Shown here in pieces: positions 2 to 5,767 of a DNA stretch of 7,103 nt; positions within the stretch are counted from its first letter, which is position 1, and each line of letters begins with the position of its first letter. Origin of the DNA: JBHIER01 sp046760705 [NCBI: bacterium] (lineage in GTDB: Bacteria > JBHIER01 > G020348925); assembly GCA_046760705.1 (NCBI GenBank), contig JBHIER010000176.1, positions 1 through 7,103 of the forward strand, written 5' to 3'. The notes beneath the pieces were generated by a model. That model had not been told where the DNA came from, did not search any database, and saw only the letters and a program-made list of their open reading frames with translations. The translations under genes were made by a program, and so were the position numbers.

Positions 2-727
2 ATACTCCTGGACCATTTTGGGCAGGGTGTGGAGGTGAGGAGCAAAAGCTCGGAGATCGATCTGGTGACGGAGGCCGACCTGGCCTCCGAACGGTTCATT
101 GTTAAGACTATCCGAAGCCGATATCCTGAGCACAGCGTCCTGTCCGAGGAGAAGGTAGGGGAGGAACGGGGCAGCGATTATGTCTGGCTCGTCGATCCTC
201 TGGACGGAACGGTCAATTACGCCCACCGGTTTCCTGCCTTCTGTGTGACCGTCGCTCTGCAGTACAGAGGCGATCCGATTTTAGGGGTGACGTACGATCC
301 ACTGAGGGGTGAGCTGTTCGCCGTCGAAAAGGGTCGGGGCGTAACTCTCAATGATCGTTCCCTCAGGGTTTCGGAGACGGAGCGTCTGGTCCAGGCCCTT
401 GTAGCCACGGGTTTCCCCTATAAGCGGGCGACCATCCCTGACAACAACCTGGCTGAATTCAATCGCGTTCTGCCGAAGGTTCAGGGGGTACGACGGGGTG
501 GCTCAGCGGCGCTGGATCTGGCCTACGTTGCAGCCGGACGCTTGGACGGCTACTGGGAATCCCACCTCTCCCCCTGGGATTGGGCCGCAGGTGCCTTAAT
601 GGTTCAGGAGGCCGGCGGCAAGGTTACAGATAGAAATGGCCAACTGTGGACCTTTGACAGTAAAGGGATGGTAGCGACAAATGGTTTGATTCATCAAGAG
701 CTGTGGGAAGTGGTCAGTGGTCGGTGA
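2..727 (+). CDS. Inositol-1-monophosphatase family phosphatase (5' end off the window)
   Basis: This protein belongs to the Mg2+-dependent IMPase/SuhB/FBPase-like sugar phosphatases, which hydrolyse inositol monophosphate or related phosphate monoesters in the cytosol. A GTG at 29 could be read as a start, but the frame stays open to the left edge. It reads ILLDHFGQG immediately before VEVRSKSSEIDLVTEAD, a typical stretch of the family's first helix. I therefore treat it as partial, probably lacking about 20 residues. Counting from the codon at 29, the metal-binding signatures are all present: the acidic pair in LSEE (E40-E41), WLVDPLDGT (residues 53-61, with D56, D59, G60 and T61), and the C-terminal WDWAAG with D184. 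Nothing in the core is missing. The exact substrate cannot be told from sequence, and fructose-1,6-bisphosphate or another sugar phosphate is possible. A REP-like hairpin begins 17 bp after the stop. Confidence 0.93.
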   Translation: MLLDHFGQGVEVRSKSSEIDLVTEADLASERFIVKTIRSRYPEHSVLSEEKVGEERGSDYVWLVDPLDGTVNYAHRFPAFCVTVALQYRGDPILGVTYDPLRGELFAVEKGRGVTLNDRSLRVSETERLVQALVATGFPYKRATIPDNNLAEFNRVLPKVQGVRRGGSAALDLAYVAAGRLDGYWESHLSPWDWAAGALMVQEAGGKVTDRNGQLWTFDSKGMVATNGLIHQELWEVVSGR

Positions 728-743
728 ATGGTAGGTAGTGGAA

Positions 744-767
744 GTAGCCGCACTTTCCAAAGTGCGG
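744..767 (+). repeat. REP-like unit 1 (GTAG foot plus perfect hairpin)
   Basis: The 24-bp unit starts GTAGCC and continues as a perfect inverted repeat, CCGCACTTT / AAAGTGCGG around a CC centre. It is the same unit type as the five copies at 5263-5488, and like them it follows a G-rich leader (gtagtggaa). It stands alone: no facing partner unit follows. The downstream sequence keeps a short stretch (gtaaagag, 791-798) that also occurs in the linker of the pair at 5263-5329, so this may be a decayed pair. It lies in the 107-bp gap between the phosphatase and TtcA-like genes and could form a hairpin in the transcript. No T-run follows, so it is not a standard intrinsic terminator. Confidence 0.75.
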
Positions 768-790
768 TCTGAAGTCTTGTGGCAAAGGGC

Positions 791-810
791 GTAAAGAGAA
801 GTAAAGAGAA
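791..810 (+). repeat. Tandem 10-bp duplication before the TtcA-like gene
   Basis: GTAAAGAGAA occurs twice in a row, 25 bp upstream of the next gene's ATG. It may be remains of the REP-pair linker, which has gtaaagag at 5299-5306. No function is implied. Confidence 0.6.
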
Positions 811-834
811 GTTCAAAAATCAGGGTGACGGTTA

Positions 835-1587
835 ATGGAAGACAGGTTAGCTTTTTACCTCCTCAAAAAGATCAACAAGGCACTTCGCCACTATAGCATG
901 ATTGAGGATGGGGACCGGATTGTGGTAGCGGTGTCGGGTGGGAAGGATAGCTTGTCTTTGCTAAAGTTGCTGCAATTGAGAAAACGCACCGATTCACAAA
1001 AATACGATCTTGTCGCCGTCCACGTCCAGTCGGACTACCGCTGCGCCGGATGTGCCCACCGTGAGACGCTGGAGCGGATCTTTGAGGAGTACGGTATTCA
1101 ATTCGCCTTTGAACAGATTCGAGTGACGGTAACTGAAGACGGCACGAGGCGCGCCCCCACATGCTTCTGGTGTTCGTGGAACCGGAGAAAGGCGCTCTTT
1201 CTGACCGCTCAGCGTCTGGGGTGCAACAAAGTGGCCTTCGGCCATCACGCTGACGACGTGGCCCAGACGACTCTGTTGAACCTCTTTTATCATGGCCGGT
1301 TGGAGACAATGGAGCCGAAGGTGGTGTTTTTTGATGGAAAGATCACCGTCATCCGGCCATTGGTCTACGTGCCTGAGCGCGAGGTTATTCGGTTTGCTAA
1401 AGCAAACAATTTCCCGTCCCAGTTGTGTCGATGCCCGAACAGTTTCACCTCGAAGCGCACTCGAATGAAGGAGGTTTTGAGGACCGTCGAAAAGGAGTGC
1501 CCGAAAGTGAAGATCAACCTGAGTAAAGCCATCGAGAACTGTACGAGAGGGGTTAGCAACCCAGAGGTGGGGCAGAGAGAATTGTAA
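835..1587 (+). CDS. TtcA-like tRNA 2-thiocytidine synthetase (PP-loop ATPase)
   Basis: The 250-residue protein is a PP-loop (adenine nucleotide alpha hydrolase) enzyme. Family members adenylate C32 of tRNA and replace its oxygen with sulfur, using a [4Fe-4S] cluster. The P-loop motif SGGKDS is at residues 34-39. A CxxC (C110, C113) sits just before the LG..KVAFGHHADD segment (128-141), and a third cysteine region, CRC, is at 198-200. This matches the two-plus-one cysteine layout of E. coli TtcA. IRPL at 173-176 and the LFY.G.LETM stretch at 150-159 are also typical. An additional CxxC (C70, C73) directly follows the HVQSDY segment and could bind a second metal. The protein is shorter than E. 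coli TtcA (about 310 residues). The ATG at 835 has a modest Shine-Dalgarno (agggtga, 822-828). A different PP-loop tRNA thiolase subfamily remains possible, so no symbol is given. Confidence 0.85.
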   Translation: MEDRLAFYLLKKINKALRHYSMIEDGDRIVVAVSGGKDSLSLLKLLQLRKRTDSQKYDLVAVHVQSDYRCAGCAHRETLERIFEEYGIQFAFEQIRVTVTEDGTRRAPTCFWCSWNRRKALFLTAQRLGCNKVAFGHHADDVAQTTLLNLFYHGRLETMEPKVVFFDGKITVIRPLVYVPEREVIRFAKANNFPSQLCRCPNSFTSKRTRMKEVLRTVEKECPKVKINLSKAIENCTRGVSNPEVGQREL

Positions 1588-1594
1588 AATTAAA

Positions 1595-1746
1595 GTAACT
1601 ATTCAGCTTACCTCATTGGATAACCTCATTCCACCTGTCATTCCGGTTCCGGCGAAGGAGGATACCGGAATCTCCCTATTGAATGCGGAGATCCCTCCAT
1701 TCCGCTCTGCTTCAGCCGCAATGACAGTGCATAGCTGAATAGTCAC
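1595..1746. mobile_element. MITE-like nested inverted-repeat element
   Basis: This 152-bp non-coding element fills most of the gap between the TtcA-like gene and the cupin gene. Its ends are a 14-bp terminal inverted repeat with one mismatch: GTAACTATTCAGCT at 1595-1608 against AGCTGAATAGTCAC at 1733-1746. Inside lies a second, larger palindrome of two 41-bp arms (1635-1675ish and 1687-1727), starting CTGTCATT and ending AATGACAG, with about 27 of 41 positions matching. Local hairpins also occur, for example ATTCCGG (1640-1646) with CCGGAAT (1665-1671). AAA flanks both ends, which could be a 3-bp target duplication or chance. No open reading frame is credible here. The inner part resembles the GTCATTCC/GGAATGAC interspersed palindromes seen in many bacterial genomes. 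That comparison is from memory. Confidence 0.65.
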
Positions 1747-1804
1747 AAATGAAAAATAAGCGAACACATGTTCTATTCACATCACATTTTTTGGAGGTGA
1801 ACAG

Positions 1805-2128
1805 ATGCTCGCGCGTGTTGATATCAAGAAGGTCCAGAAGGGGTTGAAAGAGCCGTGGATGCCTGTGGATGTAGCCAGGGTGAACAATTTTGCTGTGCGG
1901 TGCGTCAAGATTAAAGGCGAATATCACTGGCACACGCATCGGAACGAGGACGAGTTCTTTCTCGTGCAGGACGGCAAAATGGTTATCCAAACGACGGAAG
2001 GCGATGTCTCCTTGGGGACTGGTCAGGGGGTGGTGGTTCCGAAAGGGATGAGGCACTGCTCGAAGTCGGATAGGGGGGCTGTTGTCCTGGTCTTTGAGCG
2101 GCAGACGACGCGAAAAGAGGGCGACTGA
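1805..2128 (+). CDS. Single-domain cupin protein
   Basis: The 107-residue protein is one conserved beta-barrel cupin domain. Both cupin motifs are intact. Motif 1 is H43-x-H45-x4-E50-x6-G57, and motif 2 is G73-x5-P79-x-G81-x2-H84. Together these give the usual three-His/one-Glu metal site, so it should bind a divalent metal. Small cupins of this kind act as enzymes, small-molecule binders or sensors, and sequence alone does not say which. The start at 1805 is well supported by a strong Shine-Dalgarno, GGAGGTGA at 1793-1800, four bases upstream. Its TGA overlaps the ATG of the AlaX gene (TGATG, 2126-2130), so the two are expected to be co-translated. The C-terminal tail (RQTTRKEGD) is short and charged. 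The inverted-repeat element ends 58 bp upstream of the start and may sit close to or within its promoter. Confidence 0.9.
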   Translation: MLARVDIKKVQKGLKEPWMPVDVARVNNFAVRCVKIKGEYHWHTHRNEDEFFLVQDGKMVIQTTEGDVSLGTGQGVVVPKGMRHCSKSDRGAVVLVFERQTTRKEGD

Positions 2129-3324
2129 TGACCGAGCGATTGTACTTCGATGATCCATATCGGATCGATTTCGTCGCCACGGTGGTCGGCAGAGTCGAGG
2201 TGGACGGAAGGCCTGGTCTGATCCTGGATCAGACCTGCTTCTATCCCAGGGCCGGAGGACAGGGGTGCGATCGCGGGTTTTTGAACGACGTTCCGGTCAT
2301 CGATGTCCTTGAACGCGAGGGCGAGATTCTTCATCTCATGGGTGACGAAATAACCGCAGACAGCGTCGGCGGCAGGATCGATTGGAAGCGGCGGTTCGAT
2401 TTTATGCAGCAGCATTCGGGTCAACATGTGTTGTCCCAGAGTTTTCTTCGCGTGCTCGGGGCCGATACCGTGTCGGCCCATCTGGGCGAGGAGACCTCAA
2501 CCATAGAGATAGCTCGGGAAGACCTGACCATTGAAGAGGCCCACTCCGTGGAACAGTTCGCAAACGGGGTCCTCTTCGAGAATCGACCGATCAAAACCTA
2601 TTTCGTATCGGAAGATGAAATCAGTAAGATTCCTCTGAGGAAAGTTCCCCCGCAGAAGGGAAATTTCAGGATCGTGGAGGTTGAGGCTTTCGACCATTCT
2701 GCCTGCGGCGGGACCCACTGTCACTGCACCGGAGAGATCGGGCTCATCAAGGTGGGTCGATGGGAGAGGATCAGAAAGAACATCCGTCTCCAGTTTCTGT
2801 GCGGAGGCAGGGCCCTATCGGATTACAGATGGAAGAGCCAAGTGGTTGAGGAGCTCGCTGAGCGATATTCGGCCAGAGGTTCCGATGTGATCGCTCTGGT
2901 TACGAAGCAGGCCGAGGAGAACAAGGAACTCCGCAGGAATCTGAGGAGCCTGTCGGAGCGGGCGATGGAATTTGAAGCCCACGAACTGCTCTCGAAGGCT
3001 GTGGTGTTGGGGGAGATCAGAGTGGTCAAGGCCGTCTTTGACCGTCGGCCCTTTGAAGAGATCAAATCACTGGCCTCAAAGATTGTCGATTGTGAGAAGG
3101 CCCTCGTCCTCTTCGGCAACCGGGGGGAGAAAGGACAGTTGCTCTTTTCCTGTTCCGAGGGACTTCCGTACAAGATGAACGACCTCATAGGCGATGCCTG
3201 TGCCAGGCTTGGCGGACGCGGCGGCGGGTCTCCGAGACTTGCTTTCGGTGGCGGTCCGGGGACAGAGAAAGTCGAAGAGGCGGTTATGAGCGTTTGTGAG
3301 CATATTCTGAAAGGGCAGGGCTGA
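2128..3324 (+). CDS. Alanyl-tRNA editing protein, long AlaX type with DHHA1 domain
   Basis: The 398-residue protein resembles the C-terminal half of alanyl-tRNA synthetase without its catalytic core. Free-standing AlaX proteins of this layout hydrolyse mischarged Ser- or Gly-tRNA(Ala) in the cytosol. The N-terminal barrel contains FYPRAGGQ (residues 38-45), equivalent to the family's glycine-rich FYPxGGGQ but with Ala at one Gly position. The zinc-binding editing core follows: H96-x3-H100 (HSGQH) and C193-x3-H197 in ACGGTH. Residues about 255-295 are charged and helical, a likely coiled coil. The C-terminal DHHA1 domain ends in the glycine-rich loop GGRGGGSPRLAFGGG (362-376). The extra cysteines C198 and C200 beside the zinc site are notable. 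The ATG overlaps the cupin stop codon, and no separate Shine-Dalgarno is obvious, consistent with translational coupling. Confidence 0.92.
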   Translation: MTERLYFDDPYRIDFVATVVGRVEVDGRPGLILDQTCFYPRAGGQGCDRGFLNDVPVIDVLEREGEILHLMGDEITADSVGGRIDWKRRFDFMQQHSGQHVLSQSFLRVLGADTVSAHLGEETSTIEIAREDLTIEEAHSVEQFANGVLFENRPIKTYFVSEDEISKIPLRKVPPQKGNFRIVEVEAFDHSACGGTHCHCTGEIGLIKVGRWERIRKNIRLQFLCGGRALSDYRWKSQVVEELAERYSARGSDVIALVTKQAEENKELRRNLRSLSERAMEFEAHELLSKAVVLGEIRVVKAVFDRRPFEEIKSLASKIVDCEKALVLFGNRGEKGQLLFSCSEGLPYKMNDLIGDACARLGGRGGGSPRLAFGGGPGTEKVEEAVMSVCEHILKGQG

Positions 3325-3616: not shown

Positions 3617-5266
3617 GTGCGACCCCTCGTCATGATCACCGCGCTGCTGATGGGTGCCTCTCTCTGGGGATGCCAGAAGCTGCCCGAGAAGGAGGAGGAG
3701 ATCAAGACTGAGAAGGACGTGGCGAAATTTTTGGATCGATTGGAGAAAGGCTACGAAACTTCTTGTATCCGGATGGGTCAGGCCACTTGGAACCTCTATT
3801 CCGGCGAAGGAGGGGCCGACCTGAACTCCGTGAGGGCCGAGTTCGCGGATATTTTTCTCAATAGTGTATACCGCAAGATCGTCACTCACTGGAGATATTC
3901 CGCTGATAAGGAGATCGATGGTGAGCTCAAGAGACGCCTCGACGTCTGGAGCCAGTCTTTTTTAGGGGCCTACGTGGAGGAGGACGAAGAGATCTATACT
4001 CTGGAGACTTCGTTGGAGGAACGAAACCATCAGTTCCCGTTTTCTATGGATGGGAGGGTGATCTCTCGGGCCGAGCTGAACCGTATTGTCCGCACCGATC
4101 CGGACCCCGAGAGACGCCGTAGGGCGTGGGAGGCTTTCGGTCTCCTTTCGGAGGCCATGGAGAGCGATCTGCTCCGGTTAATGCGGAAGAGAAACGAGAA
4201 TGTGGAGCTTCTGGGCAGGCAGATAGATTATGGAACCTTTTCGTTAATGGTTCAGGCCATCAACGCCGGGTGGCTGCGAGGGCTCATCGATAGGCTGGAA
4301 GAGCGAACGCGGCAGCCGTACCGGGAGTTCGTCAACTCTTTGAGGGAGGGGTTAGGGATGAAGACCCTTCGCCCCTGGGACATCCAGTATGCGATGCGCC
4401 AGGCGGCCTCCCTTCCGGATGAATACTTTCCCAGAGATCGAGCCCTGCCGACCCTTTTTGAGTTCGTGAGGGCCATCGGGTTTCAGGCCGATAAACTGCC
4501 CATCCGGATCGTTGAGGGCAACGTTGCTTACAGATGCCTCGGGCTGGCGGTCCGTATCCCGAGCGACTTCCGGCTTTTGGTCAACCTGAGTCAGGGCCAC
4601 CGTTTCTATTCGACTCTCTTCCACGAATACGGGCGCGGACTGTACGCCGTTCATATCCAGGCAGAGCTGCCCATTTTGAAGGGATACGATTGGGTCTTGG
4701 GGGCCAGCAGTTCTGCTTACACCGAGGGTATGGCCGAGGTGATGGCCGAGTTCACGAGGGATCCGCTGTGGCTCAAAAAGTACACCCACCTTCCTGAAGA
4801 GCAGATCGAATTGTATGCCAGCGCCCGGGCCAGATTGGAATTGTACACTATCCGATCGCTCATGAGCACCATCTCCTTTGAGCTTCGGGCTTACGAGAAT
4901 CTGGAACAGAACCTGGACCGGCTTCAGAAGGAGTTGGAGCGAAAGTTCCTGTTGGTGGATACTCCTGAGGATACGCCATCTCGCTGGGCGTCAATGACGT
5001 CTTTGGTCACTTCTCCGATCTACTATCAGAATTACCTCCTGGCGGCGGTGGTCTCTGCCCAGATCCATCAGGCTCTCAAAGAGCAGTTCGGTGATCGGAT
5101 GATCGATAGTCCCGAGGTGGGGAGGTGGCTCATCGAAAATCTCTATACACCGGGGGAGACGCTCCCATGGCGGGAGCGCATCCGCCAGGCTACTGGCAAG
5201 TGGCCGGATATCGATGCTTATGTTGACAGGCTTGTTGGGGCGACGACGGCTGCGTGGTGGAGGTAG
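3617..5266 (+). CDS. M2/M3-like metallopeptidase homologue, predicted lipoprotein, zinc motif altered to HEYGR
   Basis: From the GTG at 3617 the product is 549 residues. It begins with Arg-2, a hydrophobic core (LVMITALLMGAS) and LWGC, a plausible lipobox that would make Cys-21 the lipidated first residue. The rest is helical and resembles gluzincin peptidases of the ACE-like M2 and oligopeptidase M3 families. DPDPERRRRAWEAF and NENVELLGRQIDYGTF match their N-terminal helices, and the C-terminal W..RIRQATGKWP is M2-like. The expected FHExxH reads FHEYGRGLYAVH, so H336 and E337 are kept but the second zinc ligand is R340 (codon CGC at 4634-4636; CAC would be His). A candidate third ligand is E370 in YTEGMAEVM. 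The protein may thus be catalytically dead, use another ligand, or carry a sequence error. Starts at 3563 or 3572 would add a long hydrophilic leader. Its TAG stop lies inside a repeat foot. Confidence 0.8.
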   Translation: MRPLVMITALLMGASLWGCQKLPEKEEEIKTEKDVAKFLDRLEKGYETSCIRMGQATWNLYSGEGGADLNSVRAEFADIFLNSVYRKIVTHWRYSADKEIDGELKRRLDVWSQSFLGAYVEEDEEIYTLETSLEERNHQFPFSMDGRVISRAELNRIVRTDPDPERRRRAWEAFGLLSEAMESDLLRLMRKRNENVELLGRQIDYGTFSLMVQAINAGWLRGLIDRLEERTRQPYREFVNSLREGLGMKTLRPWDIQYAMRQAASLPDEYFPRDRALPTLFEFVRAIGFQADKLPIRIVEGNVAYRCLGLAVRIPSDFRLLVNLSQGHRFYSTLFHEYGRGLYAVHIQAELPILKGYDWVLGASSSAYTEGMAEVMAEFTRDPLWLKKYTHLPEEQIELYASARARLELYTIRSLMSTISFELRAYENLEQNLDRLQKELERKFLLVDTPEDTPSRWASMTSLVTSPIYYQNYLLAAVVSAQIHQALKEQFGDRMIDSPEVGRWLIENLYTPGETLPWRERIRQATGKWPDIDAYVDRLVGATTAAWWR

Positions 5267-5343: not shown

Positions 5344-5363
5344 GTTGGCCTGAGAGGTGGTGT

Positions 5364-5433
5364 GTAGCCGAGCTTTCCAAAGCTCGCAGGGGTTGGGGGT
5401 GGGCCAAGAGCGCGGAATAGAATCCGCGGCTAC
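5364..5433. repeat. REP-like inverted pair B (BIME-like)
   Basis: The architecture is that of pair A: a plus unit at 5364-5387 and a minus unit at 5410-5433. The left stem is CGAGCTTT/AAAGCTCG around CC, a perfect inverted repeat that differs from pair A on both sides of the stem, so pairing is kept. The 22-bp linker is rich in G-runs (aggggttgggggtgggccaaga). Confidence 0.8.
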
Positions 5434-5464
5434 AGAGGATTGGACGTGCGAGGAGGTGGTGGAA

Positions 5465-5488
5465 GTAGCCGCGCCTTCCATAGCGCGC
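5465..5488 (+). repeat. REP-like single unit C
   Basis: A lone 24-bp plus unit starts GTAGCC, with stem CGCGC/GCGCG. It is preceded by the leader ggtggtggaa shared in part with the other plus units, and it ends 11 bp before the Shine-Dalgarno of the next gene. In an mRNA the hairpin would sit just ahead of the ribosome site, so it could affect translation. That is inference. Confidence 0.75.
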
Positions 5489-5499
5489 AAATTTAAGAC

Positions 5500-5506
5500 G
5501 GAGGAG
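5500..5506 (+). promoter_or_regulatory. Shine-Dalgarno site deciding the start of the small protein
   Basis: GGAGGAG lies directly upstream of the ATG at 5510. It supports that start over an upstream in-frame ATG at 5357, whose extra sequence is only translated REP repeat. Confidence 0.75.
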
Positions 5507-5509
5507 ATT

Positions 5510-5767
5510 ATGAAGAGGAAATTCAACAGAAAGCTTTGTGTGCCCGACGGAAAGGGCGGGTGGAAACTGCGGGTCTATCATAGAAGTGGAACAGGGAAGA
5601 TGTCTCCCCGTTACCTTTTCAAATGCGGAGACTGCGACGAACGTCTGGAGGTCTATTACGACGAGGAGTTTCTCGAAATAGGCGGAGTCAATGCTTCTAT
5701 TGAGGAGTGGCAGAGTTATTTGCTCCCCCTGCTAAAGGCGGTGCCAGAGAAGTCTGAAAAGAGATGA
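5510..5767 (+). CDS. Small conserved-looking protein of unknown function, one CxxC
   Basis: The protein has 85 residues and I do not recognise the family with certainty. It begins with a basic stretch (MKRKFNRK), then a GGWKLRVYHRSG segment (16-27), then YLFKCGDCDERLEVYYDEEFLEIGGV (35-60) with C39-x2-C42, and an amphipathic C-terminal part (IEEWQSYLLPLLKAV). A third cysteine is C10. There is no signal peptide or membrane segment, so it is probably cytosolic. A single CxxC with one further Cys might bind a metal, perhaps across a dimer, but this is a guess. A good ribosome site and ordinary codon use argue that it is a real gene. It stands alone between the REP cluster and a convergent dehydrogenase gene, so the context offers no functional clue. 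Confidence 0.75.
   Translation: MKRKFNRKLCVPDGKGGWKLRVYHRSGTGKMSPRYLFKCGDCDERLEVYYDEEFLEIGGVNASIEEWQSYLLPLLKAVPEKSEKR

What the first reader, a model, noticed from the sequence alone, without database searches (positions are those of the whole stretch)
3617..5266. Peptidase homologue with HEYGR in place of the zinc motif HEXXH
The surrounding sequence (STLFHEYGRGLYAVH, then YTEGMAEVM 34 residues on) aligns by eye with M2/M3 gluzincins, where the pattern is HExGH. The second zinc-binding histidine is Arg-340, one base from His (CGC versus CAC). The rest of the reading frame is intact over 549 residues and has a lipoprotein signal, so the gene does not look decayed. Either this is a surface pseudo-enzyme with a binding or scaffold role, or an unusual active site, or a single-base error.
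Basis: partly seen in the sequence, partly recalled or inferred. Interest (0 to 1): 0.6.

Follow-up and report, generated by a model that had tools for sequence, protein, structure and literature searches.

The report
Dead-site relative of bacterial ACE peptidases
An environmental bacterium carries an intact, probably exported relative of ACE-type zinc peptidases in which an arginine replaces one zinc-holding histidine and other active-site parts are also changed, so it most likely binds something rather than cutting it.

Summary
Window 3617-5266 (+) encodes 549 residues with H336-E-Y-G-R340 where relatives have HExxH; R340 is CGC at 4634-4636, and the third-ligand Glu aligns with E370. Its nearest relatives are bacterial M2-like (ACE-like) peptidases: a profile of 16 HExxH-bearing relatives, built without it, scores it at 183.5 bits; the best of 200 shuffles has 2.4. 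All 28 other rows aligned at the motif have His.

R340 is not alone. A K-x-H pair is M-x-S, the KNPHAF segment holding the ACE-type substrate-site His is gone or rewritten, and five residues (net) are added between motif and third ligand. A syntenic orthologue in Gemmatimonadota bin29 (63% over 324 codons, dN/dS about 0.14) shares all 17 of P0001's 17 losses at family-invariant columns up to residue 322, but its contig ends just before the motif.

Best reading: an old pseudo-peptidase clade under purifying selection, not a lone base error. What it binds is unknown, and R340 itself rests on one sequence. Inactive M2 relatives are known from animals; my limited searches of an open-licence library showed no bacterial one.

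The parts
3617..5266 (+). CDS of the pseudo-peptidase, 549 aa, GTG start
   Evidence: open frame; family profile match 183.5 bits
3604..3610 (+). Shine-Dalgarno-like AAAGGAG, 6 nt before GTG 3617
   Evidence: read from sequence
3617..3673 (+). hydrophobic signal-like segment ending in L-W-G-C19 (possible lipobox)
   Evidence: 12 of the 16 relatives in A1 also have a hydrophobic start ending in Cys; the orthologue has L-F-H-C, which is atypical; no predictor was run
4532..4537 (+). R306-C307: place where the family's KNPHAF segment (ACE substrate-site His-Ala) is missing or rewritten
   Evidence: MAFFT puts a 7-residue deletion between R306 and C307; HMMER instead spreads gaps and puts R306 at the His column; either way P0001 has no His there
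4622..4636 (+). H336-E337-Y338-G339-R340 in place of HExxH; Arg codon CGC 4634-4636
4679..4693 (+). 5 extra residues (K355-W359 in MAFFT) between the motif helix and the third-ligand Glu
   Evidence: HMMER gives 6 in and 1 out, net 5
4724..4726 (+). E370, retained third zinc-ligand position
4982..5002 (+). R456-W-A-S-M460-T-S462 in place of DWAAKIH: K-x-H lost
   Evidence: MAFFT, HMMER and hhalign agree; decayed copy L083 also has Ser at the His position
5021..5035 (+). Y469-Y470-Q-N-Y473: tyrosines of the site retained

Best explanation
The gene encodes an inactive homologue of the bacterial M2-like (ACE-like) gluzincins: an exported, possibly lipid-anchored protein that keeps the family's overall sequence frame but cannot assemble the usual catalytic zinc site. 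Shown: Arg at the second zinc His, loss of K-x-H, loss or rewriting of the KNPHAF segment, a longer loop before the third ligand, retained H336/E337/E370/Y470/Y473, and in the orthologue the same losses at family-invariant columns up to residue 322 with purifying selection. Inferred: the R340 guanidinium sits where zinc would and pairs with E337 and E370, holding the two helices together without metal, and the remodelled cleft binds a peptide or a partner protein without cutting it. The HELGH paralogue found in the related genome is one candidate partner.
For: Homology: 183.5 bits to a profile of 16 HExxH-bearing relatives built without it; hhalign 99.9%. Second zinc His in 28 of 28 other rows aligned there, third-ligand Glu in 27 of 27. 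Distance alone does not explain the loss: four long-aligned relatives at least as far from the family (L099, L101, L102, L103: mean identity 20.2-24.0%, P0001 24.5%) keep both. Further losses: the K-x-H Lys is in 16 of 16 family rows, its His in 26 of 27 rows aligned there; P0001 has neither. The syntenic orthologue in bin29 (IMPase-, TtcA- and cupin-like genes, AlaX, then this gene): of 27 family-invariant columns in residues 2-322 P0001 has lost 17, and the orthologue has lost the same 17 (10 with the same letter). dN/dS 0.138 over 324 codons, AlaX 0.113. The pair is a clade at 100/100 on a stem of 2.61 changes per site with end branches of 0.3 and 0.21: fast change, then constraint. In ACE relatives the zinc ligands are His, His, Glu, and lisinopril contacts are His, Ala, Glu, Lys, His, Tyr, Tyr (PMC3235092, passages).
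Against: R340 is seen in one sequence only; the orthologue stops before the motif. H336, the catalytic-base E337, E370 and both tyrosines are kept, which a long-dead site need not do. The KNPHAF His is missing in 2 of 16 relatives that keep HExxH (L086, L100), so that loss alone does not mean inactivity; the gap placement there depends on the aligner, and the orthologue has a His two residues upstream of P0001's R306, so its loss of that His is not certain. The K-x-H Lys is absent from the 10 more distant HExxH controls with a letter there, so it is a group feature, not a universal one. The equivalence of K-x-H to the ACE K-x-H is by motif; HMMER places it two residues off. L099, with HExxH, also lacks the His of K-x-H. 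The tree does not resolve where the pair joins and warns of long branches. The structure model was unusable (mean pLDDT 39.5). dS is near saturation, and selection on residues after 324 was not measured. There is no ligand or partner evidence.
Confidence: 0.75

Rival explanations
1. A sequencing error or a mutation private to this strain at 4635, in a gene whose clade otherwise carries His and is made of ordinary peptidases.
For: Single-base distance; no second sequence covers R340; H336, E337, E370 and both Tyr are intact.
Against: Independent of that base: K-x-H to M-x-S, the changed KNPHAF segment, the longer loop. The orthologue shares 17 of 17 losses up to residue 322, and a decayed copy also has Ser at the K-x-H His position.
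Confidence: 0.1
2. A divergent but active hydrolase: metal held by H336, E370 and another residue, or a reaction that needs no zinc.
For: E337, H336, E370 and Y473 are retained; some proteins called pseudoenzymes later proved active (Introduction of PMC11266112).
Against: The nearest following His is H346, ten residues after H336 (sequence), badly placed on a helix to replace residue 340 (inference). K-x-H is lost too. No model of useful quality exists to test other residues.
Confidence: 0.12
3. A young pseudogene that has not yet gained stops.
For: A decayed relative with two stops exists in the bin29 genome.
Against: Open over 549 codons with a Shine-Dalgarno-like site; dN/dS 0.138 with the orthologue over 324 codons, AlaX 0.113; place next to AlaX kept in both genomes.
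Confidence: 0.03

Closest known systems
Bacterial M2 family metallopeptidases such as Priestia WP_207372572.1 (H1, L100), and the bin29 paralogue L082
   Same: Alignable over most of the length; first zinc His, catalytic Glu, third-ligand Glu and last Tyr kept
   Different: They have HExxH and K-x-H, and L082 the KNPHAF-type segment (14 of the 16 relatives have its His); P0001 has none of these
Animal inactive ACE relatives: C. elegans ACN-1, Drosophila Ance-2 to -5, mammalian ACE3
   Same: M2-family proteins lacking zinc or catalytic residues and predicted not to be peptidases (PMC9518657, PMC1325048, PMC1925091; passages)
   Different: Eukaryotic; ACE3 changes the Glu (HQMGH), Ance-3 the downstream Glu; their sequences were not aligned here
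alpha-MPP, the non-catalytic subunit of mitochondrial processing peptidase (M16)
   Same: HxxDR: Arg in place of a zinc His; works with an active homologue; prokaryotic alpha/beta gene pairs are reported (PMC11266112, Introduction and section '4 Other pseudometallopeptidases')
   Different: Another family; partnership of P0001 with a paralogue is only a conjecture
M3 and M32 peptidases (PF01432, PF02074)
   Same: Pfam matches above cut-off
   Different: The M3- and M32-like rows aligned at the motif keep HExxH

Membership tests
M2 (ACE) peptidase family, PF01401 | Pfam gathering score of 23 bits | tested here: not met
   18.8 bits; relatives L082, L085, L093, L100 pass with 37.7-99 bits
M2 (ACE) peptidase family, PF01401 | HExxH plus downstream Glu as zinc ligands | tested here: not met
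   HEYGR; first His and downstream Glu kept, second His replaced
M2 (ACE) peptidase family, PF01401 | substrate-site Lys and His (K-x-H) | tested here: not met
   M-x-S
M2 (ACE) peptidase family, PF01401 | substrate-site His-Ala segment | tested here: not met
   deleted in MAFFT, R306-C307 in HMMER; also without the His in 2 of 16 relatives
Bacterial M2-like group as an evolutionary group (inactive homologue) | whole-length profile similarity | tested here: met
   183.5 bits, best of 200 shuffles 2.4; hhalign 99.9%
M3 peptidases, PF01432 | Pfam gathering score of 27 bits | tested here: met
   43.9 bits
M3 peptidases, PF01432 | HExGH zinc motif | tested here: not met
   HEYGR
M32 carboxypeptidases, PF02074 | Pfam gathering score of 25.1 bits | tested here: met
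   30.2 bits; best stretch only residues 469-539
M32 carboxypeptidases, PF02074 | HExxH zinc motif (recalled as defining) | tested here: not met
   HEYGR
Pseudo-metallopeptidases (a functional kind) | no metal binding and no catalysis in the purified protein | not testable with these tools
   needs protein
Bacterial lipoproteins | lipobox before a Cys, and lipidation | tested here: inconclusive
   LWGC in P0001, LFHC in the orthologue, read by eye; no predictor run

The most novel reading that the evidence does not exclude
R340 acts as a built-in cation that replaces the zinc ion, locking the gluzincin fold without metal, and the protein serves as the non-catalytic partner or peptide-capture subunit of an active HExxH paralogue: a bacterial ACE-fold parallel to alpha-MPP.
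Probability: 0.15. Interest if true: 0.6.

Novelty: new variant of a known kind. Interest (0 to 1): 0.4.

Why it matters
Inactive ACE relatives are documented in animals, where loss of acn-1 is lethal (PMC9518657, passage). A bacterial lineage that made the same kind of change, in a probably exported protein kept next to AlaX in two genomes, would let the question of what a metal-free ACE fold is good for be tested with a simple purified protein. It is also a caution for annotation: Pfam calls it Peptidase_M3, yet it should not be counted as a peptidase.

Tried and rejected
The genome-contig scan with P0001 found no relative; the second and last scan went to the AlaX neighbour and gave L001. 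Viral-contig scans with P0001, A1 and A2 found none. phmmer of P0001 alone against PDB gave nothing significant (best E 0.056); the family profile, with P0001 in it, reached ACE chains at 1.5e-30. A first ORF extraction read the + strand only and missed most loci; one search replaced it. The AlphaFold2 job on P0001 plus the truncated orthologue gave mean pLDDT 39.5 and was discarded without a fold search. Proteins of genome-search loci were not sent to the folding tool, because its stated rule does not list that source; the second folding job was not used.

Rejected: 'M3 enzyme with one odd residue' (further site residues are lost); 'plain divergence' (equally distant relatives keep the motif). 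'Another His completes the site' is thought unlikely from sequence spacing only. The leave-one-out count (P0001 keeps 36 of 77 columns invariant in the 16; each of the others keeps 89-100%) is not used as proof, because P0001 is also the most distant row there. A cleaner test of shared loss (17 of 17) was added.

Rows dropped: of 19 places, 15 went into A1; left out were L081 (truncated orthologue), L083 (decayed), L098 (truncated, no motif) and L099 (distant; a control). Of 12 plasmid hits, 3 were fetched (H1, H2, H5), 1 used in A1. The tree used 27 of 33 rows (the L083 fragment, L098, L101, L102, L110 and L112 were left out).

Full report
What is there. The + strand frame 3617-5266 is open for 549 codons. 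It has AAAGGAG six bases before GTG 3617 and a hydrophobic start ending in L-W-G-C19. HEYGR is residues 336-340 and the Arg codon is CGC at 4634-4636; the family's third-ligand Glu aligns with E370. Reads could not be checked.

What family it comes from. Pfam gives Peptidase_M3 (43.9 bits, cut-off 27), Peptidase_M32 (30.2, cut-off 25.1, best stretch 469-539) and Peptidase_M2 below cut-off (18.8 against 23). The best plasmid hit is a Priestia gene annotated 'M2 family metallopeptidase' (5e-28 over 93% of the query). No genome is held for the window. A scan with the AlaX neighbour led to Gemmatimonadota bin29 (L001; AlaX 64%). P0001 was searched in 50 of the 80 genomes reached through AlaX loci (16 of 50 with a match at 1e-6), and the A1 profile in the other 30 (8 of 30; nine of ten places partial). 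Fifteen loci and the Priestia gene made a set of 16 HExxH-bearing relatives (A1 with P0001). Pfam, run on four of the 16, scores M2 at 37.7-99 bits. The profile of A1 finds ACE and ACE2 chains in the PDB, best 1.5e-30 (60 of 188 hits shown). A profile of the 16 alone scores P0001 at 183.5 bits, the best of 200 shuffles at 2.4; hhalign of nine relatives against P0001 gives 99.9% over 512 columns.

The site. At the second zinc His, 28 of 28 other rows aligned there have His, M32-, M3- and Vibrio-type relatives included; L109 did not align there but has HEGGH in its sequence, and L098 is truncated. The third-ligand Glu is present in 27 of 27, the last Tyr of the Y-x-x-Y in 27 of 27. P0001 keeps the first His, the Glu base, the third-ligand Glu and the tyrosines, but has Arg at the second His. 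It has M-x-S for K-x-H, on which MAFFT, HMMER and hhalign agree; the Lys is in 16 of 16 family rows, the His in 26 of 27 rows aligned there. Five residues net are added between motif and third ligand. The KNPHAF segment, whose His-Ala aligns with CHASAWDF of ACE, is missing (MAFFT: 7-residue deletion between R306 and C307) or rewritten (HMMER: R306 at the His column).

Set against ACE. In the oyster ACE paper (PMC3235092, passages) the zinc ligands are H/H/E and the lisinopril contacts H, A, E, K, H, Y, Y; P0001 lacks one zinc His, the first H-A pair, and the K and second H of that list. Caveats: two of the 16 relatives with HExxH also lack the KNPHAF His (L086, L100), L099 with HExxH lacks the His of K-x-H, the Lys is not found in the 10 more distant controls with a letter there, and HMMER puts K-x-H two residues from the ACE K-x-H, so that equivalence is by motif.

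Not plain divergence. Mean identity of P0001 to the 16 is 24.5%; that of L099, L101, L102 and L103 is 20.2-24.0%, and all four keep HExxH and the Glu.

An old, constrained clade. In bin29 the order IMPase-like, TtcA-like, cupin-like, AlaX and this gene is kept. The orthologue is 63% identical over 324 codons and aligns without a gap over residues 2-322. Its contig ends at a 100-N run at L001 10237, twelve bases after the last aligned codon and before the motif, so it says nothing on R340. Of 27 columns invariant in the 16 relatives and lying in residues 2-322, P0001 has lost 17 and the orthologue has lost the same 17, 10 with the same letter. One doubt: it has a His two residues before P0001's R306, which another alignment might match to the KNPHAF His. 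dN/dS is 0.138, AlaX 0.113 (dS about 2, so rough). In the tree the pair has 100/100 support, a stem of 2.61 and end branches of 0.3 and 0.21; its place among the M2-like rows is unresolved and the program warns of long branches. bin29 also has a HELGH paralogue (L082) and a decayed fragment with two stops, 49% identical over 63 residues, with Ser at the K-x-H His position as in P0001.

How it most likely works. The zinc site cannot form in the usual way. By charge and position R340 could fill the zinc pocket and pair with E337 and E370; this is inference. The kept frame and the remodelled cleft suggest binding without cutting: peptide capture, as has been speculated for ACN-1 (PMC9518657, passages), or a partner role, as for alpha-MPP with its HxxDR (PMC11266112, two sections). 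Nothing here chooses between these. The structure job gave mean pLDDT 39.5 and says nothing.

Known or new. Inactive M2 proteins are known in worm, fly and mammals (PMC9518657, PMC1325048, PMC1925091; passages, and one section of the last). Bacterial pseudo-metallopeptidases of other families are in print: prokaryotic MPP-like pairs (PMC11266112), and perhaps a C. difficile Pro-Pro endopeptidase relative (PMC11460543, seen only in the listing, where it holds the word 'pseudoprotease'). For a bacterial M2 case, the searches (open-licence PMC papers; lists capped at 15 of 212, 10 of 17 and 10 of 51) showed none that I recognised from titles and abstract starts. I rate it a new variant of a known kind. 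By the membership rows it is filed not as an M2, M3 or M32 peptidase but as an inactive homologue of the bacterial M2-like group.

The odds of the best reading stay at 0.75, since one weakens and the other strengthens it; for the same shared-loss result the young-pseudogene rival was lowered to 0.03.

Noticed in passing
L083 1501-1713 (bin29 genome, G001:C1:2907777-2907989): Decayed fragment related to P0001 with two stops inside, in the middle of a contig; the rest of that gene was not recognisable by tblastn of P0001 against L083.
   Followed up: partly
window 29-3324 and L001 5626-9188: Gene order IMPase-like, TtcA-like (tRNA thiolation type, with CxxC pairs), cupin-like and AlaX-like alanyl-tRNA editing protein is kept between the window and bin29 (64-76% identity); the cupin-like and AlaX frames share one base at 2128. 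The cupin label is mine.
   Followed up: partly
L001 10237-10336 and L083 30-129: The bin29 'chromosome' CP070758 holds runs of exactly 100 N that look like contig joins, so genes near them are cut.
   Followed up: no
window 5357-5767: Open frame after the peptidase gene with a CGDC motif; not run through a protein-family library, only by tblastn against L001 (no hit at 1e-3).
   Followed up: no
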